From positions 1 through 32,318 of IMG/VR virus record IMGVR_UViG_3300031255_000001: DNA of 32,318 nt. One strand, 5' to 3'. The notes beneath the pieces were generated by a model. That model ran no database searches and was not told where the DNA came from. It saw nothing but the letters and a program-made list of their open reading frames with translations. The stretch is from a virus. Positions 1-32,318 of this stretch are shown here, piece after piece (position 1 is the stretch's first letter; each line of letters opens with the position of its first letter). The position numbers and the translations under genes are program-made.

Positions 1-1310
1 CCCGTGTCAGAAGTAGCTGTCTCCGAGAAATTGACTTTAAAGTCATTTGTTGCACCCAAATCCTCATCATCTGGAACAAGCTTCCTCATACAACCCTCGC
101 CCAGCGTAGTATCCCATACGGTGTAATACCATTTTGGATCTTCCCTATCTCGATGGAGATGATTAACTACCTGGTTGGAATCGGAAAAGTCATAAGCTAT
201 CTGGACACCCGATTGGGCAGAACGTGATCCCCACTCACCCGAAGCAAATGCAGACTTGTAAAAATATACATCCTCATCGGGACAGCCGACAAAGATAAAA
301 GTATTGTATTCCGGCATATAACGCCAGCGGTTATAAATCTTAGTAGAAGTCCCCACACAACTTGTGGGTGGATTATTGGCCAGGTCTCTTGTCGTCCAGA
401 CATTAGTTGTCATGTTCATTTCGTAGATTATACCACCAGTATATCCGATTAATTTATCTTCTATCGGAGAAAAATCAATGCCGGGTGCTTGAGCATTTAT
501 AATCGAACTGCCGCCGGTCGATGAAATATTATGGGGAGATAATGGAGTCGATTCGTCAAGATCGAAATACCAGAAGTCTCCCTCGCCACAGGCGATATAC
601 CAATTCCTACTGGTATCAATACAGGCCGTCCTACCATAGCTCTGTGCATGATAATCACTGATTAGAGTAACGGATTGACCCACAAGATCAAATTTATAAA
701 GATAGTGTTCGTCATGCAGATAGAAACAAGTATCTTTGGGGCTGAAATGGCTATTCATGCCAAGATAAGTATCGGTCTCATCAGAAAGTCCACCAATATT
801 AGTCCACGTATCTGTAGTTGGGTTCCACTCCCAGAATTGATCTGATCCACCACCTGTTTGGCAAGCTAACGAACCACCATATTCCAAAAACCTATTTCTG
901 ATATAATCAAATTCAAGACCATCGTAAGTATGTCTTTGGTTCGGGATTCCACCGACAGATTCAACACAGCTTCCACCATAACTGTTGAGTCCATTCCTAT
1001 CCCATGCAAAACGCCAGGCCAAATCAACCAAATCAAAATAATATCCTTCTGTACCGTAGTAATCATTATGACCGCCACCAGTAATATACATCCTATGAGT
1101 AACTGGATCATATGCACCGCTATTCCATGCCCCTATCATATTCTCAATGTCATTACCATAGCCGTCATTTGCATAGGAGATGCAATTCATCTTGCTTGAA
1201 TCATTGCTTACCTGATACCAGGTATGTTCCTGCATCTCAACAAATTTAGAGAACGTTGCGCTTAATGAAATGCAATAATTAATCAGTATGAATATCAATA
1301 TTTTTTTCAT
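1..1310 (-). CDS. Secreted kelch/beta-propeller-like protein, 3' end cut by the window edge
   Basis: An open frame of 436 codons runs from ATG at 1310 to the left edge with no stop, so the C-terminus is missing. The N-terminus MKKILIFILINYCISLSA is a signal peptide, probably cut after the second Ala-type small residue. The mature part has kelch-like blades: YDPVTHRMYITGGGH, FWEWNPTTDTWTNIGGL, IIYEMNMTTNVWTTRDL and YMPEYNTFIFVG, each an aromatic/Gly strand pair. This suggests a beta-propeller used for binding, for example to glycans, though no catalytic site is visible. The start overlaps the stop of the LamG-like gene as ATGA, so the two are translationally coupled. It is the fifth gene in a row with a signal peptide. 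It could be a virion fibre or a secreted lysogeny factor; I cannot tell which. Confidence 0.8.
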   Translation of the reverse strand, partial: MKKILIFILINYCISLSATFSKFVEMQEHTWYQVSNDSSKMNCISYANDGYGNDIENMIGAWNSGAYDPVTHRMYITGGGHNDYYGTEGYYFDLVDLAWRFAWDRNGLNSYGGSCVESVGGIPNQRHTYDGLEFDYIRNRFLEYGGSLACQTGGGSDQFWEWNPTTDTWTNIGGLSDETDTYLGMNSHFSPKDTCFYLHDEHYLYKFDLVGQSVTLISDYHAQSYGRTACIDTSRNWYIACGEGDFWYFDLDESTPLSPHNISSTGGSSIINAQAPGIDFSPIEDKLIGYTGGIIYEMNMTTNVWTTRDLANNPPTSCVGTSTKIYNRWRYMPEYNTFIFVGCPDEDVYFYKSAFASGEWGSRSAQSGVQIAYDFSDSNQVVNHLHRDREDPKWYYTVWDTTLGEGCMRKLVPDDEDLGATNDFKVNFSETATSDT

Positions 1311-2233
1311 GGATTAATCTCCACTCTTGTTGCTTTTGTCGCTCCGGCCCAACTGAAAGCATGCCCCGTTCCATAATCATCCGTTAAATCATCAACCGAA
1401 TCAAAGGTATTTTTGCCCCACCAAATATATGAGTTTCCGTCTGTTGTTTGAAGCCCTGACATATCAGCGGCCTCGGTTAACATATCTGCGGATGATAGGC
1501 AATGATTAAATATTTTTACCCTGCCAAGCGTTCCCGATAAGCGTTCATGTTGATAATCACCATACCAGGGAGAATCGCCAAAAGTGACTGCGGGATAGGG
1601 GGGATCGGTTTCTCCATAACCGCTCGAAACAGTGGTTTCTATTACATAACTGTTTGATGTATCGGGCAAATTGGCGTAAAATATAACTGTTTTTGTCCCA
1701 CTTACAACGACCCTACAGGCCTGTAAATACCAATTATCCTTTACTACGGTATATGTTCCACTGGCTCTTGTGGAGGTTTCATCACCGCCATCTATTGAAA
1801 TGTTCCAATAATGAGAAGTCCCACTGCTTGATCCATTTGTCGGATATGGAGTACAACCGTAATATGTATTAGGACTTCCGCTATCCCAAATGAATGTACC
1901 ATTATTAGACCACCACCAGACAATATAATAACCTGTTTGCTGAACGGGGTAATATTCCCATATCCATGTCGTACCCGCATCAGAGGCTCCCCATATCGGG
2001 AATCCATTATCCTGCGGATCATCAAATTGAATTGCCACAAAAGCATCTGATGGTGAATCACCATTAGAGGGGAAATCTAAACCATATATTGTTTCGGGTG
2101 GGGGTTCTTCAGCATCAGTAATAACTGTATCTATTATGCCTGGGCCAAGCTCCATTGTTCCAGGGCCAGGTTCTATTGTCTGAGGATGAACCCTAAAACA
2201 CAATAAACTAAGGAGCATTAAGAGAAAACGCAT
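1307..2233 (-). CDS. Secreted LamG/concanavalin A-like lectin domain protein
   Basis: 308 residues. The N-terminus MRFLLMLLSLLCF is a short signal sequence, followed by a Pro/Gly/Glu-rich linker with near-repeats (TIEPGPGTMELGPGIIDT). The rest resembles a LamG_3-type jelly-roll domain: W-rich strands, a Gly-rich middle and the family's typical end, GRVKIFNHCLSSADM, near residue 235. Such domains bind carbohydrate or protein and are common on phage fibres and on secreted bacterial proteins. The start at 2233 lies 26 bases inside the preceding gene and has an AAGGATGGGG ribosome-binding sequence just upstream. The downstream kelch-like gene is coupled by ATGA. The family call is by pattern only; ligand and location are unknown. 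Confidence 0.75.
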   Translation of the reverse strand: MRFLLMLLSLLCFRVHPQTIEPGPGTMELGPGIIDTVITDAEEPPPETIYGLDFPSNGDSPSDAFVAIQFDDPQDNGFPIWGASDAGTTWIWEYYPVQQTGYYIVWWWSNNGTFIWDSGSPNTYYGCTPYPTNGSSSGTSHYWNISIDGGDETSTRASGTYTVVKDNWYLQACRVVVSGTKTVIFYANLPDTSNSYVIETTVSSGYGETDPPYPAVTFGDSPWYGDYQHERLSGTLGRVKIFNHCLSSADMLTEAADMSGLQTTDGNSYIWWGKNTFDSVDDLTDDYGTGHAFSWAGATKATRVEINP

Positions 2234-2975
2234 ATATTCCCCATCCTTGCTGGTAGCCAGTACCGCTTATTGTCCATGACATTGTGGTACTCGCTCCGGT
2301 TGCAGTTTCATGTGAGGCACCGGCACCTTCATTCGGATTAAATGCCCCGCCACCTAAATTAGCAGATTGAACTTGATTTGCTCCTATTGTACATGTATAG
2401 CTATCTCCATCTAATTCAAGCCAACTCATAAAATCTAAAACCAAATCATTGGCAGAACTGATTGCATTTACTGTTGGTGCAGCATTTGTACCTGTAGCCG
2501 TAGCTATAGTATTGTTGGGTGTTGATTGATCGCAGTTTTCAATAGCAAAAGCAATTATCCAGCGTTCATCTTGACTCGAACCCCACGTTACATAAACAGT
2601 TGAAGTTTGGGCAGTTGGTGCAATCAAACGCCATAGGGTCATTCTTCCATAATCTGCTTGCATATTAAGAGTTGTACTGATCTGCGTTAATGAAGTACCG
2701 CCAGAACCGCCCCATTCTACACTATTAGCAGTTACTGGTGAACTCGCACCACTACCAGCCATTACATATAAAACTCTATTCTCTCCGCTAACTGTAAAAG
2801 AAGCGGATTCAAGACTTGTTCCTCCCCCATTATCTCCCACAGACGTTGAATCGACTATTGCTGGTGATCCTCCACCACCTCCTCCACCTCCAGGAATACC
2901 TCTACGTGTAATAATAACCTGACTATCTGCAATAGTAAAAATGATGATTGCTAATAATAAAATAAATCTTTTCAT
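2208..2975 (-). CDS. Secreted beta-rich protein with poly-glycine hinge
   Basis: 255 residues. A signal peptide (MKRFILLLAIIIFTIADSQ) is followed by a run of eight glycines at about residues 30-37 and then a beta-rich domain high in Thr, Ser, Gly and Asn, with strands such as ENRVLYVMAGSG and TVYVTWGSSQDERWIIAFAIE. The domain ends with YQQGWGIYAFSLNAP. This layout (flexible glycine hinge plus one globular beta domain) is common in phage receptor-binding and fibre-tip proteins, but the signal peptide is not expected there. A GGAAGGTGGG ribosome-binding site precedes ATG 2975. It sits within the five-gene signal-peptide run. No specific family is recognised. Confidence 0.7.
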   Translation of the reverse strand: MKRFILLLAIIIFTIADSQVIITRRGIPGGGGGGGGSPAIVDSTSVGDNGGGTSLESASFTVSGENRVLYVMAGSGASSPVTANSVEWGGSGGTSLTQISTTLNMQADYGRMTLWRLIAPTAQTSTVYVTWGSSQDERWIIAFAIENCDQSTPNNTIATATGTNAAPTVNAISSANDLVLDFMSWLELDGDSYTCTIGANQVQSANLGGGAFNPNEGAGASHETATGASTTMSWTISGTGYQQGWGIYAFSLNAP

Positions 2976-2976
2976 T

Positions 2977-4425
2977 TTAGTAATCCCACCTTCCTATTGC
3001 ATAGGCACATAATTTGTATTTAGATGGAATTGATGTTACCGCTGGAGTAGTGGCGTAGCATCTTCCTGCAAGACCAGTAGCATCGTCAAAAGTAGTGAGT
3101 TTTGTTGTCCCAAGAGTATTAATTGTCTGTGCGGATGCGAATAAGGCCGTGCCGTCACTATGGTAGAATTGTAGAGTATGATTTGGAGCCGCTGCTCCAT
3201 AAGTTACTATTACAAGCGTATCTATGGTAAACCCTCTTGGCGCATATCCAGCAGGCAAAGTATCGGTAGTGCTTATACAGGACGTATCCCCAACCGTATA
3301 AAGTGGAAGTAACTCAGGCTCGGTTCTAACAAGGCTATCAACCTGAATATAATTAAATCCAAGCAACCTACCTATTCCCTTTATTGCAGCTTGAAATATC
3401 GAAGGAAGAGTAAAAATTGTTGAATCATCATCTGTAGTTTTTGACAAGCCATAGGTTGCCAGACTTTCTTTTAAAGCTGTTGCCTGCATACCGGTTCCAG
3501 CAGGTAAATCTCCAATATCTATACCATATAAAGTTCCATCCCTTACCATTGGAAGAGTGTCACCTGTAGTAGGACTTGATCCCGCAGCAAGATGTTTCAT
3601 CACACTTAAAACAGAATCTTCAAAAAGAGAGGCCATAAAATCACCAGTTCCACTTGTAGGCCAAAGTGCTCTCCTCCATCCAACTCCAACTTCATAGTAG
3701 ATTGTAGAATCTGTGCCAGGATTTAATGTCCCATCAGTCGTACCAGCAAAATTCAATAAGTCAATATCTATTGAACTTACAACTAAACCGCCTGAAAATT
3801 TACCAACGCCTCTAAAATTAAAAGTATCTCCTGTTTCTGGTCTAAAGTTTGTGATCCTCCCAGTATCAGTAACAGTAATGTCGAGCCAGGAAGATTCAGC
3901 GGTAGCAGAAGGAGCTACCCATGTAAAATTAGTACCAGCCAAATTATAGGAAAGCAAATAGTTGTCTGTTGGAGAATTGGTTACATTGAGATCCGGCTCA
4001 TCTATTGATCCAGCAGCATATTGACCAGCTGCAACACTACCCTCAATCTCTGAAAAGTTATCATGAGCTGCATCTGTTTCATTCGCTGGTACAACCGTAG
4101 AAAGTTCACTGTTCTCCACACGAGCACCTAGGGCTTGAGCTAACATAGCTCCCGCCGTGTCTGCATCTACTGCTGGATTATTTACCGGAAGTCTATTCCC
4201 AAGAGCATCCGCAATTTTCGTCTGGTTAGTATCAGCATCAACTCCACCAAGAGCATTTAGCGAATCTATAATATTCTGGACATATAGAACAAGTCGATTA
4301 AACTCCCAATCATAACAAGAGTCAACTCCCGCAACCTTATTCGTAGGAATATCGGCAAGGTTCTGCTGAGATAATCCTATGCTGAATAAGACGAGGATCG
4401 TTAAAATAACGGTTAATATTTTCAT
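2977..4425 (-). CDS. Secreted tail-fibre-like protein
   Basis: 482 residues. The signal peptide is MKILTVILTILVLFSIGLSQ. The N-terminal third has a helical Asp/Ala-rich section with repeated DADTNQTKIADALGNRLP and DADTAGAMLAQALGARVE units, possibly a trimeric stalk. The rest is Thr/Asp/Gly-rich and beta-like, with fibre-type stretches such as TDTGRITNFRPETGDTF and TLPMVRDGTLYGIDIGDL. The composition matches phage fibre or appendage proteins, yet the export signal is clear. An AGGAATAAGG ribosome site lies just before ATG 4425. Neighbours on both sides also have signal peptides. Function is unknown; fibre-like or host-surface protein is an inference. Confidence 0.7.
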   Translation of the reverse strand: MKILTVILTILVLFSIGLSQQNLADIPTNKVAGVDSCYDWEFNRLVLYVQNIIDSLNALGGVDADTNQTKIADALGNRLPVNNPAVDADTAGAMLAQALGARVENSELSTVVPANETDAAHDNFSEIEGSVAAGQYAAGSIDEPDLNVTNSPTDNYLLSYNLAGTNFTWVAPSATAESSWLDITVTDTGRITNFRPETGDTFNFRGVGKFSGGLVVSSIDIDLLNFAGTTDGTLNPGTDSTIYYEVGVGWRRALWPTSGTGDFMASLFEDSVLSVMKHLAAGSSPTTGDTLPMVRDGTLYGIDIGDLPAGTGMQATALKESLATYGLSKTTDDDSTIFTLPSIFQAAIKGIGRLLGFNYIQVDSLVRTEPELLPLYTVGDTSCISTTDTLPAGYAPRGFTIDTLVIVTYGAAAPNHTLQFYHSDGTALFASAQTINTLGTTKLTTFDDATGLAGRCYATTPAVTSIPSKYKLCAYAIGRWDY

Positions 4426-4434
4426 GCCTTATTC

Positions 4435-5739
4435 CTACTTTAAAACAAAATTTAGTAAATAATTGAAAGTCCCAGCATATGTTTCTACCACTGGATAAAC
4501 CAGAGTATCTAAAGCAATTCTTGCACTCTTTCTGGTCACGGAATATCCAGCTTTTGGATGATTGGGAACATAAATACTTGTATAAATGCAAAAAAATAGT
4601 GAATCTCCTGGATATGGGTGATCGGCTTCCCCTCCCCAATAAACCCAATCAGTTTCGTCCAACGGAAAATTGAGAATATCATTATCTATATCTCCATCAC
4701 TTACCAAAAGTTTTATCGGAAAAGCCTGTCCACCCAAAGAATCCATATATGTATCTTTGTCGTCAATCCAGTAGCCATAATAGGAGGTCACAACAAAGTA
4801 ATCAGTAGCAACTCCATAAGGGTATTTTAAGTTAGTAACACTTGCCCAGGTATTTTTAAGTGTCGGATTGCCGTCTATCCTTACGAAAATTGAATCTCCA
4901 TTAGTTGAAATCCATATAGAATCAACCGCTAAATCTTCTTCTTTATGACAGTAGAATGTATCTTTGACTGTTGAAGTATTAATGCTATTATTTAAAGAAT
5001 CCCTTAATTGTAAATACCAATCAGCAAAGGCAACGGTATCGTCTTCAAGGTAACTGGGATTAAATGCGTTTATGGTAACTATCAAAGTAGAGTCAAAAAC
5101 ACCATTTCCATTTGTATCTGCGTACAAAGTTGCTTTCGGAAGAGTAAAACCAGTAGCAAATGACTTTGCTCCAAAATTTCCACCAGAAAGTGTATAATAA
5201 ATCCTAACATCCTTGAAATCTCGTGCGGAAACCTTTCCCGGATTGAAAGCCATGATAAGACTATTTGGCTCTACAATTGTCCCATCTACAGCAATAAGGG
5301 CTGTATCTGGCGGGACGGCATCGGCTTTTAATATTTGCCCGTATGTTGAATTGGGGATGGTATCCTGAACGAAAACTCTAACATAAACGGTATGAGAAGA
5401 ATAAGCCAAATCATAGTCCCACTTGATCAGATTGACAGTATCTCCAATTCCTCCAGTTAAAAGCTCACTACCAGCCGCTTTGGAGGCAGGATAATCAGTT
5501 GTATCCCAGCGAGCAAAGAAACTATCAAGAGTAGCATCTCCCCTGAAATTTAATGTCAATTGAGTAGAATCTGTACCGAGCGTATCTAAAGCAAGAATCG
5601 GAGATCTGGGTGGAATTATATCAGATGATAAGCCGATAAGGCCAAATTCAGGCCATTCCGGGAATATTAGGAATTCAGGGAATTGAGCAAAAAGCGAAGA
5701 AGTTAAAAAGAATAAAAAAAAATATTTATATATTTTCAT
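4435..5739 (-). CDS. Secreted protein with fibronectin/Ig-like repeats
   Basis: 434 residues. The signal peptide MKIYKYFFLFFLTSSLFAQ has the SLFAQ end typical of FCB-group exported proteins. It is followed by an odd Pro/Glu/Phe-rich patch (FPEFLIFPEWPEFG). The mature protein reads as two to four beta-sandwich domains of Ig/fibronectin III type (for example SPILALDTLGTDSTQLTLNF, then HTVYVRVFVQDTIPNSTYG), with TLYADTNGNGVFD resembling a calcium-binding loop. No enzyme motif is seen. It is the first of the five-gene signal-peptide run, directly after the lysis genes. It could be surface-exposed on infected or lysogenic cells, or a virion protein processed in an unusual way. Confidence 0.7.
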   Translation of the reverse strand: MKIYKYFFLFFLTSSLFAQFPEFLIFPEWPEFGLIGLSSDIIPPRSPILALDTLGTDSTQLTLNFRGDATLDSFFARWDTTDYPASKAAGSELLTGGIGDTVNLIKWDYDLAYSSHTVYVRVFVQDTIPNSTYGQILKADAVPPDTALIAVDGTIVEPNSLIMAFNPGKVSARDFKDVRIYYTLSGGNFGAKSFATGFTLPKATLYADTNGNGVFDSTLIVTINAFNPSYLEDDTVAFADWYLQLRDSLNNSINTSTVKDTFYCHKEEDLAVDSIWISTNGDSIFVRIDGNPTLKNTWASVTNLKYPYGVATDYFVVTSYYGYWIDDKDTYMDSLGGQAFPIKLLVSDGDIDNDILNFPLDETDWVYWGGEADHPYPGDSLFFCIYTSIYVPNHPKAGYSVTRKSARIALDTLVYPVVETYAGTFNYLLNFVLK

Positions 5740-5756
5740 ATTTATGGACCAAATGA

Positions 5757-6038
5757 TTAAGTTTTTTCTCTTAAATGACTATTCAGATCGTTTTGCATTT
5801 GGAGAATATCCTGTTTATTCCCCTCAATGGCATCCCAAACCCTTTTTAATTTTTCAGATAAATGAGATATGTTTACAAATCCTTCGAGAGATTTTTCCAA
5901 TCGCGATATGGTTTGAGTTAGAAAATTGAGATTTGAGTTTAGCTTCGATAAAAACCATATTAAACCACCTGTTTGAATTAAAAGAAAAATAACAATGGTA
6001 ATTCCAAGCTGAAATACTTCTTTAGGTATCGAAAACAT
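5757..6038 (-). CDS. Membrane-anchored coiled-coil protein (spanin-like?)
   Basis: 93 residues from ATG 6038, chosen because GAGG lies six bases upstream; ATG 6050 (preceded by AGGGA) would add four residues. One N-terminal membrane helix (about residues 9-31: FQLGITIVIFLLIQTGGLIWF) is followed by a long amphipathic helix with heptad-like hydrophobics (LNFLTQTISRLEKSLEGFV and onward). The start lies inside the end of the amidase gene. This position next to the endolysin, with a single N-terminal TM plus coiled coil, fits an inner-membrane spanin, but the protein is short and no outer-membrane partner with a lipobox is seen. An accessory lysis protein is the working guess. Confidence 0.65.
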   Translation of the reverse strand: MFSIPKEVFQLGITIVIFLLIQTGGLIWFLSKLNSNLNFLTQTISRLEKSLEGFVNISHLSEKLKRVWDAIEGNKQDILQMQNDLNSHLREKT

Positions 6039-6951
6039 TAAAAGCCTCATATATTCCCTGAGCAATTGCCTTACTCAATCTCTCGGTGTAAATAAAAGAA
6101 AGAAGCTGCTCGCGCTCTTTCTCATTGCTTAAAAATCCTAATTCAAGCAAAATGGCCGGCATACGGGTCTTTCGCAGAACAGCAAAATCAGCTTCTTTAT
6201 CAGTATCTCCATCACTGAGATCAATTCTTAGGGCTAATTCCGGGATCAATTTGCTAACCGAATTAAAAACAGAATCAGCGAATCGATCGGCATCTGTTTC
6301 ACCCCGGCTGGTCCATATTTCAAAACCGTGAGCTCCCGGATCCTCGGAAGCGTTACAATGTACAGATATGAATAGGTCGGCCTCATTTTCATTTGCGATT
6401 TCGGCCCGCTTTATGAGATCTTTACTCAAGATATGAGATAAATGATTATCAGAGATCCGGGTCCAGATTATATCAAAATGCAACCGCAGGAGAGATGATA
6501 ATCGATGAACATATCTGAAATTGACATTTGCTTCTTTTACTCCTGCTGAAACTGCGCCCGGGAATTTTCCTCCATGACCGGGATCCAGACAGATGAGCAG
6601 CCGGTTCCTTTGGGGAACAAAGAGAGGAATTATTGCCAGGTGAACCAGATAATACCAGGAATCCCCCCAGAGAAAAATAGTGGCCGTTAAATATCCAAAA
6701 ATGGCCATAATAAGATCTTCAACTGCACCCTGGCGGGTTTCATTTTTCTGGCTTAACTGCCATACTTCATATCCACTGGCCACAAAAATGAGAACGAGCG
6801 TATAAATACCAAAATACCATTCCCAAACATTTTTGATGCCCATGATCCTTATAAAAATTATTGTGACCAGACAGGAAATGATATAATGCCAGGGCGCTCC
6901 CCAATTCCGCTTTGTTAAATCAAAAAAGAATTTATTAATATTTTTAAACAT
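6022..6951 (-). CDS. Multi-TM domain fused to N-acetylmuramoyl-L-alanine amidase (endolysin)
   Basis: 309 residues. The C-terminal part (about 118-305) is an Amidase_3-type zinc amidase that cleaves the bond between N-acetylmuramic acid and L-alanine in peptidoglycan. Expected ligands are present: His126 in CLDPGHGG, Glu140 in VKEANVN, His198 in ISVHCNA, and the catalytic Glu270 in LLELGFLSN. The first 115 residues are hydrophobic with about four membrane helices (about 21-38, 44-64, 77-95, 99-113). A membrane domain fused to an endolysin is unusual: it may act as a built-in holin or tether. It sits between a small membrane protein gene and a TM/coiled-coil gene, forming a lysis cassette. The enzyme call is confident; the role of the membrane part is inferred. 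Confidence 0.9.
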   Translation of the reverse strand: MFKNINKFFFDLTKRNWGAPWHYIISCLVTIIFIRIMGIKNVWEWYFGIYTLVLIFVASGYEVWQLSQKNETRQGAVEDLIMAIFGYLTATIFLWGDSWYYLVHLAIIPLFVPQRNRLLICLDPGHGGKFPGAVSAGVKEANVNFRYVHRLSSLLRLHFDIIWTRISDNHLSHILSKDLIKRAEIANENEADLFISVHCNASEDPGAHGFEIWTSRGETDADRFADSVFNSVSKLIPELALRIDLSDGDTDKEADFAVLRKTRMPAILLELGFLSNEKEREQLLSFIYTERLSKAIAQGIYEAFNVFDT

Positions 6952-7353: not shown

Positions 7354-7830
7354 TTAAGCAGCGGGAATGGCAAATCTTGTGCGGAAATCAGATTTTGCAC
7401 TGAGATTTTCCGCTTCATATTTTGCCGGTACAGCTTCAATGTCACCAGAGAGAACAGATTCACCGAAAAATAAAAGGGCATTGGGTAAATAAATCGCTCG
7501 GCTCAGAGTCTCATCTACTATTAAAATATCCTGCGCAATATTCTCAATAGCCTCATAAGCGGTATAATCGGCTTCCATACTCTGCAATAATGTAAATTCC
7601 AGCACAGCATTATAACCCAATTTTAATTTGGTTCCATCATCGAGGATCTCTTCATCCCCTTCGGTAAATTCCAGCTTTATGGTCTTATCTCGACAATAAC
7701 CAATTTCGGTGAAGGTCGCCAATAAGGTAATCCATGCCGCATTATCTGCCGGGGGGACATCCCCCGTATCTGGTGTTCGATGCATTACGCGATAATGCGG
7801 TTTTTTGATATTCGCAGCGGTTCGTGCCAT
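7354..7830 (-). CDS. Putative major tail tube protein
   Basis: 158 residues, soluble, beta-rich, no signal peptide. It begins MARTAANIKKPHYRVM and has an acidic central turn (LEFTEGDEEILDDGTKLKLGYNAVLEFTLLQ) of the kind found in siphophage tube subunits, where strand pairs flank a charged loop. It follows the head-tail connector genes and has an AAGGAGTG ribosome site before ATG 7830, consistent with high expression. The call rests on size, fold pattern and position; I do not recognise a named family. A 70-bp gap then leads to the lysis genes rather than to tail chaperones. Confidence 0.5.
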   Translation of the reverse strand: MARTAANIKKPHYRVMHRTPDTGDVPPADNAAWITLLATFTEIGYCRDKTIKLEFTEGDEEILDDGTKLKLGYNAVLEFTLLQSMEADYTAYEAIENIAQDILIVDETLSRAIYLPNALLFFGESVLSGDIEAVPAKYEAENLSAKSDFRTRFAIPAA

Positions 7831-9239: not shown

Positions 9240-9773
9240 TTATTGAGTATCTTTGGTCAATCCCACATTCATGCGTTCAAGGCCGGAAGGTTTACGAAAG
9301 CCGGCATAATAAGTAAGTACCGTTGAATTCATAGCCTGGCCAGCCACAAACTTAAATCGCATGAAATTAAAACAATGATAGACGACAGCATCAGCCCCCT
9401 GGACTATGCCAATAGTATCAGTTTTTGCAGTGGTGCCCACAGCGTCAAGATCGGTATCTGTGGTTCCCGCCACCCATGGTCCATCTTCGGTGGGAGCGTA
9501 TTCAACAAATACATTGACATCCTCGGTACCCACCTCAGAACATACAAAATAGGCATATCCATAATCCTCTGATACTGCACCAATGAACATAGCCTGGGTA
9601 TAATAGATGGCTCCAGATCCACTATCGGCAAAAGTTACGGTTCCATAGTAAGTGAGCTTCCCGGTTCTATCGATATAACTCACATCCTGATCATAATGAG
9701 TGGCGGCCATGGCAATATTTAAGGTCAGAATCACCAAAATTATGGTGATTAGAAAAAAGATTTTAGTTTTCAA
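9240..9773 (-). CDS. Signal-peptide protein in the head module (decoration-like position)
   Basis: 177 residues starting at TTG 9773, with a GGAGG ribosome-binding site eight bases upstream. The N-terminus (MKTKIFFLITIILVILTLNIAMA) is a classical signal peptide with an AMA cleavage site before ATHYDQDVSY. The mature part is beta-rich with stretches such as EDVNVFVEYAPTEDGPWVAGTTDTDLD and FMRFKFVAGQAMNSTVLTYYAGFR, resembling a capsid decoration or spike-like beta domain. The gene sits between the capsid gene and the head-tail genes, where decoration proteins are often encoded. A Sec signal there is unexpected and parallels the run of five signal-peptide genes at 1-5739. Confidence 0.65.
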   Translation of the reverse strand: MKTKIFFLITIILVILTLNIAMAATHYDQDVSYIDRTGKLTYYGTVTFADSGSGAIYYTQAMFIGAVSEDYGYAYFVCSEVGTEDVNVFVEYAPTEDGPWVAGTTDTDLDAVGTTAKTDTIGIVQGADAVVYHCFNFMRFKFVAGQAMNSTVLTYYAGFRKPSGLERMNVGLTKDTQ

Positions 9774-16892: not shown

Positions 16893-17087
16893 TCATTCCT
16901 CTCCTTTTATAATTCTCATTGCCTCTTCAAATTTTATTACATTCTCTGGATAGATCATCAATTCCCGGCCTATCTTCATTGGTTCAAGAATATCGGCGTA
17001 TCTATGAATTAAACGCCTTACCACAAATCTTGTTTTCTTGTTCCATCGCCGCCGGAGATCCTCGGTTGTAAATAATGCTTCAGTCAT
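16893..17087 (-). CDS. Small winged-HTH (MerR/excisionase-like) protein
   Basis: 64 residues: LFTTEDLRRRWNKKTRFVVRRLIHRYADILEPMKIGRELMIYPENVIKFEEAM matches the small HTH_17/excisionase-type fold (helix, turn, helix, then a wing ending in a DNA-facing strand). It overlaps the upstream tyrosine recombinase gene as ATGA (17084-17087), so it may be a recombination directionality partner of that enzyme or a late-gene regulator. Confidence 0.55.
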   Translation of the reverse strand: MTEALFTTEDLRRRWNKKTRFVVRRLIHRYADILEPMKIGRELMIYPENVIKFEEAMRIIKGEE

Positions 17088-17704
17088 ATAACTCCCACAT
17101 TTTCAATAGCCTTATCCACGTCCTCTTCCAGGAAGGATAGATATTGATCAGTGCTTTTTATATCTGAATGGCCCAGGGCTTTTGAAGTTGATCTGAATGC
17201 ATCAAGCGGTTCACCTGCGGCTACTTTAATCAAGAAATATTTATAAATATTATTGGCGAATGTTTTTCTCATGGAATGAGTACCGAGCTTACCATTTAAG
17301 TCTGCCTCACGGAAAGTATTTGTTAATATTTTCCATGCCTGGGTCCTGCTGATTGAATAATTGCCCCGGATAGAACGGAATATACAATCGTCTTTATGAA
17401 TGATATCCATTTTTGTGAGCTCCTTCAACCAGGGGAGAATCCCATCTCGGGCGGCCTTATTTAATAAGACGGTCCGGCTGGTCTTTTTGCCCTTCATATT
17501 TCGTTTAAAAACCGTTAATCTTTTTTTAAACTGGCCATCCTCTTCAAGGACATCTTCCAATCGGAGAGATAGGATCTCAGAAATTCTGAATCCGGTATTG
17601 GCTCCTAAAATAAATAAAGCATAATTCCGGTTTTTCATCGGACCTTTAAAAAGTTTCTTAACTTTCTTGATTTCTGATAATTCTAATGGTCTAGAGCCTC
17701 TCAT
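17084..17704 (-). CDS. Second tyrosine recombinase (short, catalytic domain only)
   Basis: 206 residues, only the catalytic domain of the phage-integrase/XerC-D family; no core-binding SAM-like domain precedes it. The set of active residues is intact: Arg40 (TGFRISEIL), a Lys in the hairpin near 74-77 (MKGKKTSRTVL), His143 and Arg146 (THSMRKTF), His179 (LGHSDI) and Tyr188 (TDQYLSF). It overlaps neighbours by ATGA on both sides. A second recombinase in one phage could resolve dimers, invert a segment or serve as a late accessory factor. No inverted-repeat target was found nearby. Confidence 0.85.
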   Translation of the reverse strand: MRGSRPLELSEIKKVKKLFKGPMKNRNYALFILGANTGFRISEILSLRLEDVLEEDGQFKKRLTVFKRNMKGKKTSRTVLLNKAARDGILPWLKELTKMDIIHKDDCIFRSIRGNYSISRTQAWKILTNTFREADLNGKLGTHSMRKTFANNIYKYFLIKVAAGEPLDAFRSTSKALGHSDIKSTDQYLSFLEEDVDKAIENVGVI

Positions 17705-18093
17705 AATTTTGAAATAAAATCCTCATATTCTTTTTTATAGAGATCTTCACCAGAAAAAAAACACCAAATCTCTTTTAATAATTTTTTAATTATAAATTTT
17801 TTATTTTCTGGGGGATCTGTATCTGGTCTTGGTCGTGAATGAGTATATGATTTTGTTAAATCCTCATATTCTTTTTTATAGAGATCTTCACCAGAAAAAA
17901 AACACCAAATCTCTTTTAATAATTTTTTAATTATAAATTTTTTATTTTTAATGTTTACACTTTTTAAGTGTTGGATTTCTTCCATGAGTTTTAAAACAAT
18001 CTTTCTTGCTAGATGTTTTTTGCATTTTCTCCAGTGAATTTTCGAATTTTTTACATCAACCCATTTTCGACAATGCACACATAAAATTTTCAT
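17701..18093 (-). CDS. Small zinc-finger-like protein with a recent internal duplication
   Basis: 130 residues. The N-terminus MKILCVHCRKW...HWRKCKKH has Cys-x2-Cys and later His/Cys ligands fitting a small zinc finger. The C-terminal half contains a segment twice (NKKFIIKKLLKEIWCFFSGEDLYKKEYED, shown here as first copy ending before LTKS and second copy ending before FISKL). A good GGAGG site precedes ATG 18093. It overlaps the recombinase gene by four bases (ATGA). Family unknown; the duplication may be a length polymorphism with an unclear effect on function. Confidence 0.65.
   Translation of the reverse strand: MKILCVHCRKWVDVKNSKIHWRKCKKHLARKIVLKLMEEIQHLKSVNIKNKKFIIKKLLKEIWCFFSGEDLYKKEYEDLTKSYTHSRPRPDTDPPENKKFIIKKLLKEIWCFFSGEDLYKKEYEDFISKL
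17717..17948. repeat. Perfect 91-bp direct repeat inside a coding region
   Basis: Bases 17717-17807 and 17858-17948 are identical by eye, with a 50-bp spacer; the offset of 141 bp is 47 codons, so the frame is kept. Perfect identity, including third positions, marks a recent duplication. A 91-bp A+T-rich element could also be lost by recombination between copies. Confidence 0.9.
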
Positions 18094-19656: not shown

Positions 19657-20367
19657 TCAAAATATGAATCCTACTATTTTTTTTATCCGATCAAAATTAT
19701 AGCTTAACACAAAAACCCCGGCACCAGCACCTAGGGCTGTGCCTTCCCTGACATTAAGGCCAATTAAAATGGCTGTAGTTGCCGTGCCAATAAGAGCGCC
19801 CTGCAGGAGATCCTTTTGTCTGGATAGATGAATCACCAGGCGCTCAAAATTGCCATTAATTACCTGGTAATTCTTAATAACATTTTCCTGATCCGCCAAT
19901 ATAAGTTTTAGCTCGTTTTCGGCTGCCATTGAAATATCAAGGCGCTGGCTTAAATAATCACTGGCCCGGCGCACCCCGATATAATCAATGGCAATGGCCC
20001 GATCAATAAGCATTCGGGTTCCCGAAGCCATTACTCCGGGAATAGGTTCTTCCGGGTGTGCTGAGCGATATGTGATGGCTGTAAGCCTGGCCAGGCTGTC
20101 GGTAGTGAGATAGGGTAGTGTCTTAATATATTTTATCTCGGTAAGAATTAAGGTATCAACCAGCGACTTTTCAATTTCAAGGCTATCAATGATGGCTTTT
20201 TTAACAGCAATATCGGCGGTATATTTCGCAATTTCCTGATAGAGGCTATCGATTTCGCTATACAGGGCTGAACTATCTCCCCGATCCCCGGAAAGAAAAT
20301 AGCCGAGACAAAAGCCAGCAGCAATTAAAAGCAGGATGATTAGAACATTTACCAGGGTATTTTTCAT
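19657..20367 (-). CDS. Membrane-anchored coiled-coil protein, two terminal hydrophobic segments
   Basis: 236 residues. An N-terminal membrane helix (VLIILLLIAAGFCLGYFL, about 8-25) is followed by a coiled coil (SEIDSLYQEIAKYTADIAVKKAIIDSLEIEKSLVD) and further helices, ending in a Gly/Ala-rich hydrophobic part (LIGTATTAILIGLNVREGTALGAGAGVFVLSYN, about 195-228). It starts inside the end of the RuvC-like gene (ATGA). The layout resembles spanin-type or membrane-tethered scaffold proteins, but it lies in the replication block rather than beside the endolysin. Role unknown. Confidence 0.6.
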   Translation of the reverse strand: MKNTLVNVLIILLLIAAGFCLGYFLSGDRGDSSALYSEIDSLYQEIAKYTADIAVKKAIIDSLEIEKSLVDTLILTEIKYIKTLPYLTTDSLARLTAITYRSAHPEEPIPGVMASGTRMLIDRAIAIDYIGVRRASDYLSQRLDISMAAENELKLILADQENVIKNYQVINGNFERLVIHLSRQKDLLQGALIGTATTAILIGLNVREGTALGAGAGVFVLSYNFDRIKKIVGFIF

Positions 20368-27489: not shown

Positions 27490-28613
27490 TCCCCCGAAAA
27501 GCCAGCCTCAAAAAACGCCGGAATTTTAAGAATCAAATCAAATTATCATTCCATGATGCAAATCCCCGATATTTCACTCCGGTCTGCGCTGAAGAAGAGA
27601 TACCAGGAATAATCTCACATATTAACCATCTGATAACGCTTGGTAAGTTCTCACCGGAAGATTTTATCCCAGGCCTCCAGGCGGAGCTTATGACTATGAT
27701 TCAGCTTTCGGAAGAATATTTACAATACCGTAAGAAGGCGGTGGGGCGGGACCAGATCAGCAAGGGAACTTATATCAATGATTATGATGCCCTTCATAAA
27801 TTTACCACTTTTATAGGGAAAGAAAAACCTATCCGGCGTATCGGCCGGGAGGATATTGAAAAGTTCGTGGAATATCTGCATAGTATAAAGAATAAGCATG
27901 ATCGGCATTATAAAAATGGGGGGATCATGGCCAAGATCCGGCACCTTAAAATTGCTTTCAGTTATGCCGTTCAGATGGATTATATCCCAAAGAATCCGCT
28001 GTTGCGTTTCAGCCTGCCCCGGGAGAATAAAATAAAAGAAACATTTAGGTATCTTTATGAAGATGAAATTAAAACATTCCGGGAATATTTCTCAAATAAA
28101 CCACCACATCAATTGGATATTTTCGATTTTGCGCTCAATACCGGGATGCGGGCAGGTGGGATCCTATCCGCCCAGTTCCGCTGGATCCGCAATGTTGATG
28201 ATGTTCAATATCTGAGGATTATTGAAAAAAGAAAGAAGGTACGCGATATCCCCCTTAATAATAAATGCATGGAAATAATCGAGCGCCGACGCTCCTGGAT
28301 AGAAAATGGTAAATATGCGGATATTCTCCGCAAAAGTATTGCACCAAATTATTGGAGATTAGCAGCAGGAAGGGCAAAGGCGGGGTTTATATTCTTCGAG
28401 GTTTCCTCTGTTTCCGGTATTACTCATTTCTTTATGCGTGCCAGGCGGCGCCTGGAGAGGGCAGGGAAGCTCCAACGCAATGATGGGATAATATTCCATT
28501 CAACGCGGCATACTTTTGCCACCAGGAGCCTTGAGGCGGGCAAATCAGTGGGTTGGGTGAGAGAAGTCATGGGACATTCTGATATAATTCCACCCAGATC
28601 TATGCGAAAATAA
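27486..28613 (+). CDS. Tyrosine integrase; catalytic Tyr lies in the -1 frame
   Basis: 375 residues as read. It has a basic N-terminus (RKASLKKRRNFKNQIKL, arm-binding), a SAM-like core-binding domain (about 74-155) and the catalytic domain: Arg222 (TGMRAGGIL), His338/Arg341 (HSTRHTFATRS) and His364 (MGHSD). The frame then leaves the family pattern and stops. In the -1 frame from about 28592 the expected ending appears, TQIYAKITGKHLKREFDKE, with the nucleophile Tyr at 28601-28603 and TAA at 28658-28660. So the full gene is 27486-28660 with a one-base deletion or a sequencing error near 28587-28592; I see no standard slippery site. It is coupled by ATGA to the membrane protein and ends next to attP. 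Confidence 0.85.
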   Translation: MIPRKASLKKRRNFKNQIKLSFHDANPRYFTPVCAEEEIPGIISHINHLITLGKFSPEDFIPGLQAELMTMIQLSEEYLQYRKKAVGRDQISKGTYINDYDALHKFTTFIGKEKPIRRIGREDIEKFVEYLHSIKNKHDRHYKNGGIMAKIRHLKIAFSYAVQMDYIPKNPLLRFSLPRENKIKETFRYLYEDEIKTFREYFSNKPPHQLDIFDFALNTGMRAGGILSAQFRWIRNVDDVQYLRIIEKRKKVRDIPLNNKCMEIIERRRSWIENGKYADILRKSIAPNYWRLAAGRAKAGFIFFEVSSVSGITHFFMRARRRLERAGKLQRNDGIIFHSTRHTFATRSLEAGKSVGWVREVMGHSDIIPPRSMRK

Positions 28614-28812
28614 CCGGCAAACATCTAAAGCGGGAATTTGATAAAGAACTGATTTATTAATCAAGAAACTTTTTGATAAATCGATTATAAAAATGAATGC
28701 TAGATTATAATGAGGAGCGTTTTGGGAGCGTGCTATTTTTTCATGTAATCTAGTGCACGCCTTAAATCATTAAAATTATAAAGCATAAAAGAAATATGGT
28801 TACCTGCGAGCG

Positions 28813-28857
28813 GGATTCCTAATCCGGTTGTCGCAGGTTCGAATCCTGCCTGGGGTA
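28813..28857 (+). other. attP core: 3' part of tRNA-Arg(CCT)
   Basis: From the anticodon stem to the end of the acceptor: loop TTCCTAA (anticodon CCT at 28818-28820), 3' stem TCCGG, T-arm GCAGG-TTCGAAT-CCTGC (28833-28849) and acceptor end CTGGGGT plus A (28850-28857). There is no D-arm or 5' acceptor (ACCCCAG) upstream, so it is not a working gene. The 5' anticodon stem has one mismatch at 28812, which likely marks the left edge of identity with attB. Integration would rebuild the host tRNA. Confidence 0.75.
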
Positions 28858-28978
28858 CTAATGAAAACCCAATATATACTTACTTTTAAGACCATCTTAT
28901 AATTGAGAATAATACGAAAAAGACCGAAATCAGCCGAAAATAGAAGGAGCGTTCCAGGAGCGTGTTTATAATTAATTT

Positions 28979-29046: not shown

Positions 29047-29661
29047 TCAAGCGCTAACCGGTATGGCATAATCCGAATAATCATCTTTATCAATCATGAA
29101 AGATAAATTAATCAGATGAATGACAATTTTATTTCTATTAATAAAGGAATCATGATCCAGAAAATAATTCCTTGAACCAAGTGCAATTTTTTTGCTCTCT
29201 GCGGGAAAATACAATCTAAAATACCAGGTCCCTTTTGATAAAAAATAATTATCTAGCCATGAAGAAAATGCAATTATAGCATCACCATCACCTATAACAA
29301 CACCCAGATTACCAGAAGCTAAAGGATCATTTGTTCCACTATATCTAATACAGGCCAATGTCCCTGCTCCTCCGGTAAGATTAACTTCAATTATCTGAAA
29401 ACCACTGGAATTGTTTTCATAAATATCCCCAACAATCGGCGCATCTGTTATGCCGGATACCGTGAAAACAAAAAAATCAAGATTATATTCCATGGCATTG
29501 GCTTCCACAGCAACCTGATAACCAATAATTTCAGGATTCCCGGAGCGATCTTCTCCAAGTAATTTATTTATTTTATATTGTTTATTATTTTTAGATCGAA
29601 CAGATCCAATATTATAATATGTCCCGGATGCTGATGGGCTAAATTGAAGGTTTGCTCTCAT
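29047..29661 (-). CDS. Tail protein with shared beta module
   Basis: 204 residues. The middle (about 64-140) carries a beta module: FVFTVSGITDAPIVGDIYEN, GFQIIEVNLTGGAGTLACIRYSGTNDPLASG and GDGDAIIAFSSW, closely resembling one in the hub-like protein from 29984. It ends WYFRLYFPAESKKI, DHDSFINRNKIVIHLINLSF. It is last in a coupled tail operon; ATGA overlaps at its start. Probably a tail-tip or baseplate-associated protein. Confidence 0.55.
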   Translation of the reverse strand: MRANLQFSPSASGTYYNIGSVRSKNNKQYKINKLLGEDRSGNPEIIGYQVAVEANAMEYNLDFFVFTVSGITDAPIVGDIYENNSSGFQIIEVNLTGGAGTLACIRYSGTNDPLASGNLGVVIGDGDAIIAFSSWLDNYFLSKGTWYFRLYFPAESKKIALGSRNYFLDHDSFINRNKIVIHLINLSFMIDKDDYSDYAIPVSA

Positions 29662-29987
29662 GTTTCTTTATCCACGTTAATAACCGTTATATTCCCATCC
29701 CTGGGGTTTGCTTTTAAGTCTTTTATTTGTACATCATAAGTCGTAGAATTATAAATAAATTGAGGATTTTCCTCTATTGCCAATTCTTCCAGATAATCCA
29801 GCTGGGTAGATGTCAATATCCCAAAAGTGATTATCCATTTTTTCCATGCCGCATAAACTTTGCGGATCCTGGTCTTATCAGCGGCAGTAAATTCTTTCTC
29901 TTCTGTTTCGAATGAAGGGATAATTTTTACAGCCAAAAAGTCGGTAGCCGCGGATCCAGAATCCTTTTTAAATTGAAATGCTATCAT
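29658..29987 (-). CDS. Small tail protein, unknown
   Basis: 109 residues, soluble: FQFKKDSGSAATDFLAVKIIPSFETEEKEFTAADKTRIRKVYAAWKKWIITFGILTSTQLDYLEELA. It has a beta start, two helices and a beta end (FIYNSTTYDVQIKDLKANPRDGNITVINV). ATGA overlaps on both sides. The middle WKKWIITFG and strand end suggest a tail-tip accessory subunit; no family recognised. Confidence 0.55.
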   Translation of the reverse strand: MIAFQFKKDSGSAATDFLAVKIIPSFETEEKEFTAADKTRIRKVYAAWKKWIITFGILTSTQLDYLEELAIEENPQFIYNSTTYDVQIKDLKANPRDGNITVINVDKET

Positions 29988-31270
29988 ATTTCCAATACCG
30001 TTATGTCTGTGAAGAAATCAAAGATATGATTCTCCGCTTTTAATACTAGGAATTCTGTTCCATCGATAGAAACCTTTCTCCCGGGAGGAATGAATTCCAG
30101 GCATTGAGTTTTAAAATAATCTTTGTCTTTCCTGATATAATAATTATAAATGTCATCGAATGTCTGTGCAATCACAATATCTTTAACCCAGACATTCTGT
30201 ATGGCTCCAAAATCAGCCACCAGATTGAAATCTTTAAGGACATCTATATCATTTATTGATTCGCCGGTAGTGCTTCCCTGGGCTTCTATCCAGGACCATG
30301 AATCTGTCCAGGCTGAAAATGCTATTGTTGCATCGCCGGATCCCGATACGCGGGTTAAAGTCCCGGAAGCCGAAGGGTTATTTGTTCCAGAAGATCTGAT
30401 ACATACCAGGCTACCGATACCTCCTGATATCTTTACATCTCTTATAGTAAAATTACTGCTATTATTTGAATATATATCACCCGGAACCGGGGAAGTTGAA
30501 ACACTTGAAACAGAAAAGACAAAAATCCCGGAAATTTCTTCAGAATATTTAACTCCATCAACATAATTCTCTGTTACGAGTCCCTGCAGCTTTTTATTGA
30601 AAAGAGTTAATGCAATAGTTGAAGGAACTCCATACCATCCATACCAGGTTTTATATTGAAATTTGACACCGTCATAATTAAAGAACATGGCCCCAAAAAT
30701 CTGGCAAAGTTCATTTATAAATTCAGCTGTCTGCTTATTTGAAATGTAGGTTGTATAATCAACACCGGAATCATAATATTTAAAGCGAACACTACCGAAA
30801 TCAAATGCACCATGGACAGGATGAGTATAATGATTGCTGGGGAATATCCCGCCGCTGGAATCCCCCAGTGTAACGATAAAGGAACTTATGAGCAGTCTTT
30901 CAAAATTCCCGGAAAAATAAGTAGATAACCGCTCATTTTTAAAAGTAGTCAAAAATGGATTATAACAGTTAAAAGCTACTGTTTCCTCAATCCGATTATA
31001 TTCAACGCTTCGCGAATCTACCAAAAAAGACATATCAGGGTAAACCGGTGGATTAATGACCAGGTATTTATTATTCCAGTTCGCACCTGTCAGAATGGCA
31101 TCTACCCACCCCGCTTCATTTAATAATTCAATTGAAATATTCATCGGGATGATAAAGCCAAGGCGATCCTGATCTTCAAAGCTTATTGAAAAAGATTTAA
31201 TTAATGAGCCCTCAATATTGGTCCCATCGAGAGTAAGGCCCACATCACCTATTTGGCTGGGAATCGACAT
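29984..31270 (-). CDS. Putative tail hub / distal tail protein
   Basis: 428 residues, mainly beta. The start (IGDVGLTLDGTNIEGSLIKSFSISFEDQDRLGFIIPMNISIELLNEAG) and the later DYFKTQCLEFIPPGRKVSIDGTEFLVLKAENHIFDFFTDITVLEI are like baseplate hub or distal-tail proteins of siphophages, which have barrel-type domains. Between about residues 250-325 lies the module shared with the 29047 gene (VPGDIYSNNSSNFTIRDVKISGGIGSLVCIRSSGTNNPSASGTLTRVSG). ATG 31270 shares a base with the TMP stop (TAATG). Confidence 0.55.
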   Translation of the reverse strand: MSIPSQIGDVGLTLDGTNIEGSLIKSFSISFEDQDRLGFIIPMNISIELLNEAGWVDAILTGANWNNKYLVINPPVYPDMSFLVDSRSVEYNRIEETVAFNCYNPFLTTFKNERLSTYFSGNFERLLISSFIVTLGDSSGGIFPSNHYTHPVHGAFDFGSVRFKYYDSGVDYTTYISNKQTAEFINELCQIFGAMFFNYDGVKFQYKTWYGWYGVPSTIALTLFNKKLQGLVTENYVDGVKYSEEISGIFVFSVSSVSTSPVPGDIYSNNSSNFTIRDVKISGGIGSLVCIRSSGTNNPSASGTLTRVSGSGDATIAFSAWTDSWSWIEAQGSTTGESINDIDVLKDFNLVADFGAIQNVWVKDIVIAQTFDDIYNYYIRKDKDYFKTQCLEFIPPGRKVSIDGTEFLVLKAENHIFDFFTDITVLEI

Positions 31271-32318
31271 TAAAGGGTTTTCCTCCCTTCGAGTTCTTCT
31301 TGCTTCCTCACTACCAGATAAAGATCTCTCCCATCCCCGCGAATAGTTCCCATTATGCGTATATTACTTTTTTCAAAACCCCTTATAATAGCATCTTCCA
31401 ATTTATCAATATTAATTCCCATTGATATATTTGCTGGTTGCTGGACCTGGCCTCCCGCCTGATAACCTGGTGCAGTCCCCCGAGATCCCATTTTATTCAT
31501 AGCCTCGAGGAGCGGAAGAAACATCTTTGTTGAATACTGATTCATGACATATTCATCACGGCGAATTCCAATAATTCCATCCTCACCTGAAGGTGTGAAC
31601 ATACTCTGGAATAGATCAGCCTGAGTAATGAGACCCCCTGCGGCTTTTTTGGATGGTTCGTATTTAATAGATCTGATTTTTTCAACCTGAGCTAAACCAT
31701 TCGCTATTTTTATTGCGGCAACGGCTATGTCAATAGGAAATGGTAATTTCGCAATTGCAAGTGAAGCGCCTTCATAAGTATTAATTATCGCCTGGGCTAT
31801 TGATGCACCTTTACCAAATTCAAACAAGGATTTATATTGACCTTGAAAAGAATCCATCAGATTAGCGCCCTCATTAATCATTATTCTAACAGATTCTTTT
31901 GTCAGTTTCTTTTTTTCTGTTTCATAACTTAATTCTAATGCCCATTTTTTATCAACCAATTGTTTATATAAAGCCGATTCCTCTCCATATTGATTTTTTA
32001 CCATTTCCAGCTGATCATTTATGAGATTTGTCCTGTGGAAATATTCCCGGTCCATTTGATCTTCCCATAACCCGCTGAAATCCGTGCTTACCTGTGCGAG
32101 TGTCCCAAAGGTTTCAATTTCTTTGAAATTAACTTCATCAAGGCGGCTTTTAGCCAGATCAATTGAATCTTTTGATATAAGTTCTTGCGTTTTTGGTGTT
32201 TTTATTTTCAGTGGCGCTGCGCCTTCTCCTGAAAGTACAGATTCCAATAATCCTTTTTTAGAATATAATTCATCAATATTTTGGGCCATTTTACCAAGTT
32301 CCACATCAAAATTTTTAA
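31270..32318 (-). CDS. Tape measure protein, C-terminal part (N-terminus beyond window edge)
   Basis: 344 or more residues visible; the frame is open to the right edge, so the start seen at GTG 32304 is likely internal. The end has a hydrophobic stretch (ANLMDSFQGQYKSLFEFGKGASIAQAIINTYEGASLAIAKLPFPIDIAVAAIKIANGLAQVEKIR), then AAGGLITQADLFQSMFTPSGEDGIIGIRRDEYVMNQ and a Gly-rich part, characteristic of the C-terminus of siphophage tape measures. The first part is coiled coil (LAKSRLDEVNFKEIETFG, QLEMVKNQYGEESALYKQL). The protein sets tail length. It leads the tail-tip operon. Confidence 0.85.
   Translation of the reverse strand, partial: KNFDVELGKMAQNIDELYSKKGLLESVLSGEGAAPLKIKTPKTQELISKDSIDLAKSRLDEVNFKEIETFGTLAQVSTDFSGLWEDQMDREYFHRTNLINDQLEMVKNQYGEESALYKQLVDKKWALELSYETEKKKLTKESVRIMINEGANLMDSFQGQYKSLFEFGKGASIAQAIINTYEGASLAIAKLPFPIDIAVAAIKIANGLAQVEKIRSIKYEPSKKAAGGLITQADLFQSMFTPSGEDGIIGIRRDEYVMNQYSTKMFLPLLEAMNKMGSRGTAPGYQAGGQVQQPANISMGINIDKLEDAIIRGFEKSNIRIMGTIRGDGRDLYLVVRKQEELEGRKTL

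What the first reader, a model, noticed from the sequence alone, without database searches (positions are those of the whole stretch)
1..5739. Five consecutive signal-peptide proteins in a phage structural region
Each of the genes at 4435-5739, 2977-4425, 2208-2975, 1307-2233 and 1-1310 starts with a typical Sec signal (short basic start, 11-15 hydrophobic residues, small residues before the cut), followed by beta-rich binding domains: Ig-like, fibre-like, poly-Gly hinge plus beta domain, LamG-like and kelch-like. Tailed-phage virion proteins are assembled in the cytoplasm and do not need export. So either these are secreted or surface-displayed proteins made during infection or lysogeny (adhesion, surface conversion, glycan binding), or fibre-like proteins are processed in an unrecognised way. 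Five in a row with coupled translation suggest one system. I do not know a described system like this.
Basis: partly seen in the sequence, partly recalled or inferred. Interest (0 to 1): 0.82.

Follow-up and report, generated by a model that had tools for sequence, protein, structure and literature searches.

The report
Phage adhesins carrying export signals
An uncultured tailed virus of bacteria carries a row of adhesin-like genes whose proteins begin with export signals, as do experimentally detected tail fibres of some marine-bacterium viruses, which hints that such viruses send part of their particle out through the host's secretion route before assembly.

Summary
The observation largely holds. 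Five ORFs lie head to tail (gaps 9, 1, -26 and -4 nt) directly after an endolysin/spanin cassette. Four of the five have convincing Sec/SPI signal peptides; the fourth gene (1307-2233) has a hydrophobic start but a poor cut site. Three of the four cut at [A/S]|Q. The fifth gene is truncated by the contig end, which is also the end of this 32,318-bp IMG/VR record. No relatives of the five were found. The pattern has precedents. In cultured Cellulophaga phages (siphoviruses, a podovirus family, and phiSM with a sheath), consecutive fibre or tailspike genes carry the same type of signal. Fourteen such proteins in five phages are annotated as found in virions by MS/MS. One of these enzyme bodies also occurs with a virion-anchoring Mtd_N/collagen start in place of the signal. 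P. gingivalis phages are reported to carry similar genes. Most likely the window encodes late-expressed, Sec-exported adhesins that join virions at lysis. A purely secreted or surface role remains possible. Signals are shown by sequence, virion presence by annotation in other phages; cleavage, export and assembly here are inferred.

The parts
4435..5739 (-). Signal ORF 1 (434 aa): MKIYKYFFLFFLTSSLFA|QFPEF..., beta-rich sequence, rich in D[ST][AILVM] motifs
2977..4425 (-). Signal ORF 2 (482 aa): MKILTVILTILVLFSIGLS|QQNLAD..., fibre-like by appearance only
2208..2975 (-). Signal ORF 3 (255 aa): MKRFILLLAIIIFTIADS|QVII..., poly-Gly hinge then beta-rich domain
1307..2233 (-). ORF 4 (308 aa): hydrophobic N-terminus with weak cut site (HP|QTIE)
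   Evidence: AlphaFold model unusable
1..1310 (-). Signal ORF 5 (436 aa or more, cut by contig end): MKKILIFILINYCISLSA|TFSK..., sub-threshold kelch match
9240..9773 (-). Sixth signal ORF (177 aa, TTG start with GGAGG), directly after the capsid gene
5757..6065 (-). Spanin-like ORF (TM plus coiled coil), 17 nt before the array
6022..6951 (-). Endolysin, Amidase_3, with N-terminal membrane segment
6954..7280 (-). Small membrane protein, possible holin
7354..7830 (-). Probable major tail protein (80% identical in L003)
31270..32316 (-). C-terminal part of tape measure protein, cut by contig end

Best explanation
The five genes (plus 9240-9773) are a late-expressed set of phage adhesin or fibre-type proteins made as Sec precursors. 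They are translated together with the lysis genes, exported by the host Sec machinery, cut by signal peptidase I (often leaving an N-terminal Gln), folded in the periplasm, and joined to virions when lysis mixes the periplasm with the particles. They then serve in attachment to host surface glycans. Shown by sequence: signal peptides, gene order, operon-like packing. Shown by annotation in other phages: signal-bearing fibre proteins in virions. Inferred: export, cleavage, docking at lysis and binding function in this phage.
For: 1) Four of five consecutive ORFs, plus a sixth, carry good Sec/SPI signals, while capsid, portal, terminase and tail proteins of the same phage do not. 2) The signals follow the Gln+1 pattern: [A/S]|Q in three and P|Q in a fourth. 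It is also seen in 15 of 15 Cellulophaga fibre proteins, against 4.4% background (several of the 15 are close homologues). The Q-rule marks real SPI substrates (PMC5837995), so a cleavable signal is more likely than a bare membrane anchor. 3) Precedents annotated as found in virions by MS/MS: phi10:1 gp091-094, phi19:1 gp101-104, phi18:3 gp085-087, phi39:1 gp25-26 and phiSM gp08. 4) In phi10:1, phiSM and phi39:1 the only ORFs of 200 aa or more with signals are these fibre or lyase genes. 5) N-terminal swap: phiSM gp09 (signal) and phiST gp030 / phi13:1 gp24 (Mtd_N plus collagen, no signal; PF18454 E 1e-10 in phiST gp030) share the same SGNH/pectate-lyase body at about 63% identity; phi13:1 gp24 is annotated as part of the virion. 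6) In the gp094 family the signal plus about 20-40 following residues is the conserved module ahead of unrelated bodies, as expected of a docking segment. 7) The three tail ORFs after the window's tape measure are few and carry no recognised fibre, leaving these genes as the candidate adhesins.
Against: No relatives of the window's five proteins were found, so virion association is argued by analogy only. Virion preparations can carry free periplasmic proteins or vesicles, and the paper behind the MS/MS annotation (Holmfeldt 2013) could not be read. Many Bacteroidota phages lack such fibres: phi12:1, phi18:1, 11b (part read), B40-8. The five window proteins share no evident mature N-terminal docking motif (sequences, by eye). 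The window's host is unknown.
Confidence: 0.5

Rival explanations
1. Secreted or surface-displayed accessory proteins, not virion parts. The temperate phage exports them during late infection or lysogeny to change the cell surface, bind glycans, block superinfection or aid spread.
For: Signals and adhesin-like bodies; integrase and att-like sequence point to a temperate phage; this is the reading given for Q-rule genes of P. gingivalis phages (PMC10367356); no homology to proven virion proteins.
Against: The genes sit in the late operon straight after the lysis cassette rather than in a moron unit; comparable genes in Cellulophaga phages are annotated as virion proteins by MS/MS; no type IX secretion tail.
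Confidence: 0.33
2. The N-terminal hydrophobic helices are not cleaved or exported but are kept in the virion, for example as a fibre-docking or trimerising helix.
For: Virion proteins are normally assembled in the cytoplasm (general knowledge); the conserved N-terminal part of the Cellulophaga gp094 family includes the signal.
Against: Conserved SPI sites and Gln+1 in 15 of 15 Cellulophaga proteins and most window ORFs have no reason under this model; the related Mtd_N start is not hydrophobic.
Confidence: 0.1
3. Signals are relics of host secreted proteins captured by phages and have no phage function.
For: Bacteroides-type secreted lyases with signals are the nearest cellular-looking relatives of the phage lyases.
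Against: Non-enzymatic fibre proteins also carry signals; signals are kept across homologues in several phage families; five in a row in the window from unrelated bodies.
Confidence: 0.05
4. Start-site or chance artefact.
For: Met at residues 26-27 of ORFs 4 and 5 allows later starts.
Against: Chance about 1-4e-5; no close alternative start in ORFs 1-3; ribosome-binding matches before several starts.
Confidence: 0.02

Closest known systems
Signal-peptide fibre/tailspike modules of Cellulophaga phages (phi10:1 gp091-095, phi19:1 gp101-104, phi18:3 gp085-087, phi39:1 gp25-26, phiSM gp08-09, Nekkels gp53-55)
   Same: Consecutive long genes with Sec/SPI signals, nearly all ending [AGS]|Q, and fibre or lyase bodies in the late block, in several cases near lysis genes
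   Different: No sequence homology to the window proteins; virion MS/MS annotation exists only for Cellulophaga phages; one of their families shares a conserved mature N-terminus, the window set does not
Q-rule signal-peptide genes of Porphyromonas gingivalis prophages (proposed Nixviridae; PMC10367356)
   Same: Phage genes of unknown function with signals exposing an N-terminal Gln
   Different: Proposed there to modify the outer membrane; sequences not compared here; no virion link in the passages read
Mtd-type receptor-binding proteins (PF18454), as in phiST gp030 and phi13:1 gp24
   Same: Their enzyme body is shared with signal-bearing phiSM gp09
   Different: They begin with an Mtd_N/collagen N-terminus and no signal peptide; the window proteins have no Mtd_N
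Filamentous phage coat proteins pIII and pVIII (own knowledge)
   Same: Virion proteins made with Sec signals and assembled outside the cytoplasm
   Different: Membrane extrusion assembly, ssDNA phage, unrelated proteins

Membership tests
Sec/SPI substrates following the Bacteroidetes Q-rule | charged start, hydrophobic core, small residues at -3/-1 | tested here: met
   Met by four of five ORFs; 1307-2233 fails at -1
Sec/SPI substrates following the Bacteroidetes Q-rule | Gln directly after the cut | tested here: inconclusive
   Q after A/S in three ORFs, after P in one, Thr in one
Sec/SPI substrates following the Bacteroidetes Q-rule | host in Bacteroidota (or a high-Q lineage such as Ignavibacterium) | tested here: inconclusive
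   No host found; portal relatives in genomes only 33-51% identical and in mixed phyla
Signal-peptide fibre module of Cellulophaga phages | two or more consecutive signal-bearing long genes in the late block | tested here: met
Signal-peptide fibre module of Cellulophaga phages | sequence homology to those fibres | tested here: not met
   blastp E above 0.1 in all pairs with window proteins
Signal-peptide fibre module of Cellulophaga phages | conserved mature N-terminal segment | tested here: not met
   seen in the gp094 family, not among the window proteins
Signal-peptide fibre module of Cellulophaga phages | presence in virions by MS | not testable with these tools
   uncultured contig
Type IX secretion cargo | C-terminal Por_Secre_tail-type domain | tested here: not met
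   NCBIfam scan and TIGR04183 search of the record, no match; ORF 5 lacks its C-terminus
Lysogenic-conversion morons | own promoter and terminator apart from the late operon | tested here: inconclusive
   consensus scan gives no more sites than shuffles; gene spacing argues for one operon
Bacteroidota exports with general O-glycosylation | enrichment of D[ST][AILVM] motif | tested here: inconclusive
   11 vs 2.1 and 7 vs 2.4 expected in ORFs 1 and 2 only; not in the other three nor in Cellulophaga fibres

The most novel reading that the evidence does not exclude
Some tailed phages of Bacteroidota and related hosts build part of their virion from proteins that first leave the cytoplasm: receptor-binding proteins are Sec-exported, cut (N-terminal pyroglutamate), matured in the periplasm and docked onto particles only at lysis. 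This would be a second assembly route for tailed phages, used by different tail types and interchangeable with the classical Mtd_N/collagen anchor.
Probability: 0.4. Interest if true: 0.85.

Novelty: new variant of a known kind. Interest (0 to 1): 0.6.

Why it matters
Tailed-phage virions are taught to be assembled wholly in the cytoplasm. Signal-bearing fibre genes across several phage families, with MS/MS virion annotation and a swap between signal and classical anchor on one enzyme body, make that assumption directly testable, even by re-reading existing virion MS data for N-terminal peptides. It would also change how receptor-binding proteins are found (signal peptides are used as an argument against a virion role) and how they are expressed for study (they may need a periplasm).

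Tried and rejected
Relatives of the five proteins: four of the five were scanned against viral contigs and three against annotated phages, with no relative. Close host: the genome scan with the portal gave only 33-51% hits in mixed phyla. Single-sequence AlphaFold of two proteins: unusable, so no fold search was made. General O-glycosylation as the reason for export: motif enriched only in ORFs 1 and 2, not in the Cellulophaga fibres, so not a general explanation. Type IX secretion: no C-terminal domain. Fecal 'Bacteriophage sp.' records matching the lyase: they look like Bacteroides polysaccharide-utilisation loci (SusC/SusD-like neighbours), not phages, so not used as phage evidence. Start-codon artefact: rejected for the first three genes. 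An apparent signal on 19657-20367 is more likely a membrane/coiled-coil protein. Promoter and terminator scan: no better than chance.

Full report
What the window is. The window is a complete IMG/VR record of 32,318 bp. Read on the - strand it runs: C-terminal part of a tape measure protein (cut by the contig end), three short tail ORFs, a tRNA-3'-like sequence and a + strand integrase, early genes, terminase, lambda-type portal, protease-capsid fusion, head-closure protein, probable major tail protein, then a small membrane protein, an Amidase_3 endolysin with a membrane segment and a spanin-like ORF, and finally the five ORFs of the finding, which run into the other contig end. Both ends cut a gene. 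If the genome is circular or circularly permuted, the array lies between the lysis cassette and the tape measure gene, with an unread gap of unknown size.

Checking the observation. Coordinates and packing are right. With a rule-based Sec scorer four of the five ORFs have a charged start, a hydrophobic core and a good SPI site. 1307-2233 has the core but Pro at -1. A sixth ORF, 9240-9773, just after the capsid gene, has the strongest signal, with TTG start and GGAGG. The rate of such calls in ORFs of 200 aa or more is 3.8-5.3% in comparison phages, so four of five in a row is unlikely by chance (1-4e-5, independence assumed).

Precedents found here. No relatives of the proteins themselves were found, so I looked at cultured phages of Bacteroidota whose GenBank records mark virion proteins detected by MS/MS. 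In Cellulophaga phage phi10:1, gp091-gp095 are five consecutive signal-bearing genes and gp091-gp094 are marked as detected. phi19:1 gp101-104, all four with signals, are marked as detected. So are phi18:3 gp085-087, all three, in the family Pachyviridae, phi39:1 gp25 and the lyase gp26, and phiSM gp08, whose neighbour gp09 also has a signal. phi19:3, phi46:3, phi13:2 and Nekkels carry homologous sets. In phi10:1, phiSM and phi39:1 these are the only ORFs of 200 aa or more with signals in the stretches read. Prophages and phages of other bacteria with related portals or tape measures show no such array. The phenomenon is not universal: phi12:1, phi18:1, 11b (part read) and B40-8 lack it.

Two features tie the signals to virion proteins. 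First, the SGNH/pectate-lyase body of phiSM gp09, which follows a signal, is also found in phiST gp030 and phi13:1 gp24 (about 63% identity), where the start is an Mtd_N domain (PF18454, E 1e-10 in phiST gp030) and collagen repeats without a signal. The phi13:1 protein is marked as part of the virion. Signal and classical anchor therefore alternate on one receptor-binding-type body. Second, in the gp094 family the signal plus about 20-40 residues is conserved ahead of unrelated bodies (PHROG hits to residues 1-43). That is how anchoring modules of tail fibres behave, but here the module begins with a cleavable-type signal.

Cleavage is likely real. In Bacteroidota most SPI substrates expose Gln after the cut, which is cyclised (PMC5837995; PMC10653852). 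All 15 Cellulophaga fibre proteins examined have [AGS]|Q at the right place, against 4.4% in other ORFs (several are close homologues, so there are fewer independent cases). In the window three do, one has P|Q and one A|T. One later-read family (phi19:1 gp104 and phi19:3 gp090) has G|K instead. The Q pattern fits a Bacteroidota host or another high-Q lineage: Ignavibacterium album is reported at 77%. Mild Shine-Dalgarno usage (4.2 vs 3.6 shuffled) leaves the host open.

What was already known. Bartlau et al. note signal peptides on lyase proteins of Ingeline and Nekkels (PMC8776804). Matrishin et al. report five Q-rule signal-peptide genes in P. gingivalis phages and suggest outer-membrane modification (PMC10367356), repeated in PMC10653852. 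No paper found in the library explains signal-bearing virion proteins. The Holmfeldt 2013 paper behind the MS/MS annotation (attribution from my own knowledge) was not held.

Reading. The best-supported view is a late-expressed array of Sec-exported adhesins that become virion-associated, probably at lysis. Export signals, gene order and precedents are shown; cleavage, periplasmic stage, docking and binding are inferred. The main rival is that they act as secreted or surface factors. The window set works like the Cellulophaga modules but cannot be filed as a homologous member, because homology and a shared docking segment were tested and not met.

Noticed in passing
window 5602-5625 (- strand) and 28578-28601 (+ strand): A 24-nt exact inverted repeat joins signal ORF 1 and the 3' end of the integrase gene (chance about 2e-6 per genome). 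In the integrase it coincides with an apparent 1-nt frameshift at the GHSDI..QIYAKI motif that takes the expected catalytic Tyr out of frame; an assembly error, a gene conversion or a recombination site are all possible.
   Followed up: partly
window 28795-28860: tRNA-3'-half-like sequence next to the integrase, not called as a tRNA: candidate phage attachment site.
   Followed up: no
window 17717-17948: Two identical 91-bp direct repeats 141 bp apart.
   Followed up: no
window 17084-17704: A second, short integrase-family ORF (206 aa, PF00589 E 1e-18) lies on the - strand upstream of the terminase genes, apart from the main integrase.
   Followed up: no
window 29047-29661 and 29984-31270: Two tail proteins share an inserted stretch of about 62 aa at 61% identity, an internal duplication.
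   Followed up: partly
window 6022-6951: Endolysin with an N-terminal membrane segment (two hydrophobic stretches) fused to Amidase_3, suggesting a membrane-tethered endolysin or holin-endolysin fusion.
   Followed up: no
L003 4220-4729: A relative phage carries a signal-bearing M23-like peptidase gene (by appearance) on the opposite strand between terminase and portal.
   Followed up: no
L047 12853-13545: Riemerella phage RAP44 gp57, annotated as a structural protein with an Ig domain, also starts with a signal-like N-terminus.
   Followed up: no
L053-L056: Several 'Bacteriophage sp.' fecal records in the phage collection look like Bacteroides polysaccharide-utilisation loci rather than phage DNA.
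   Followed up: partly
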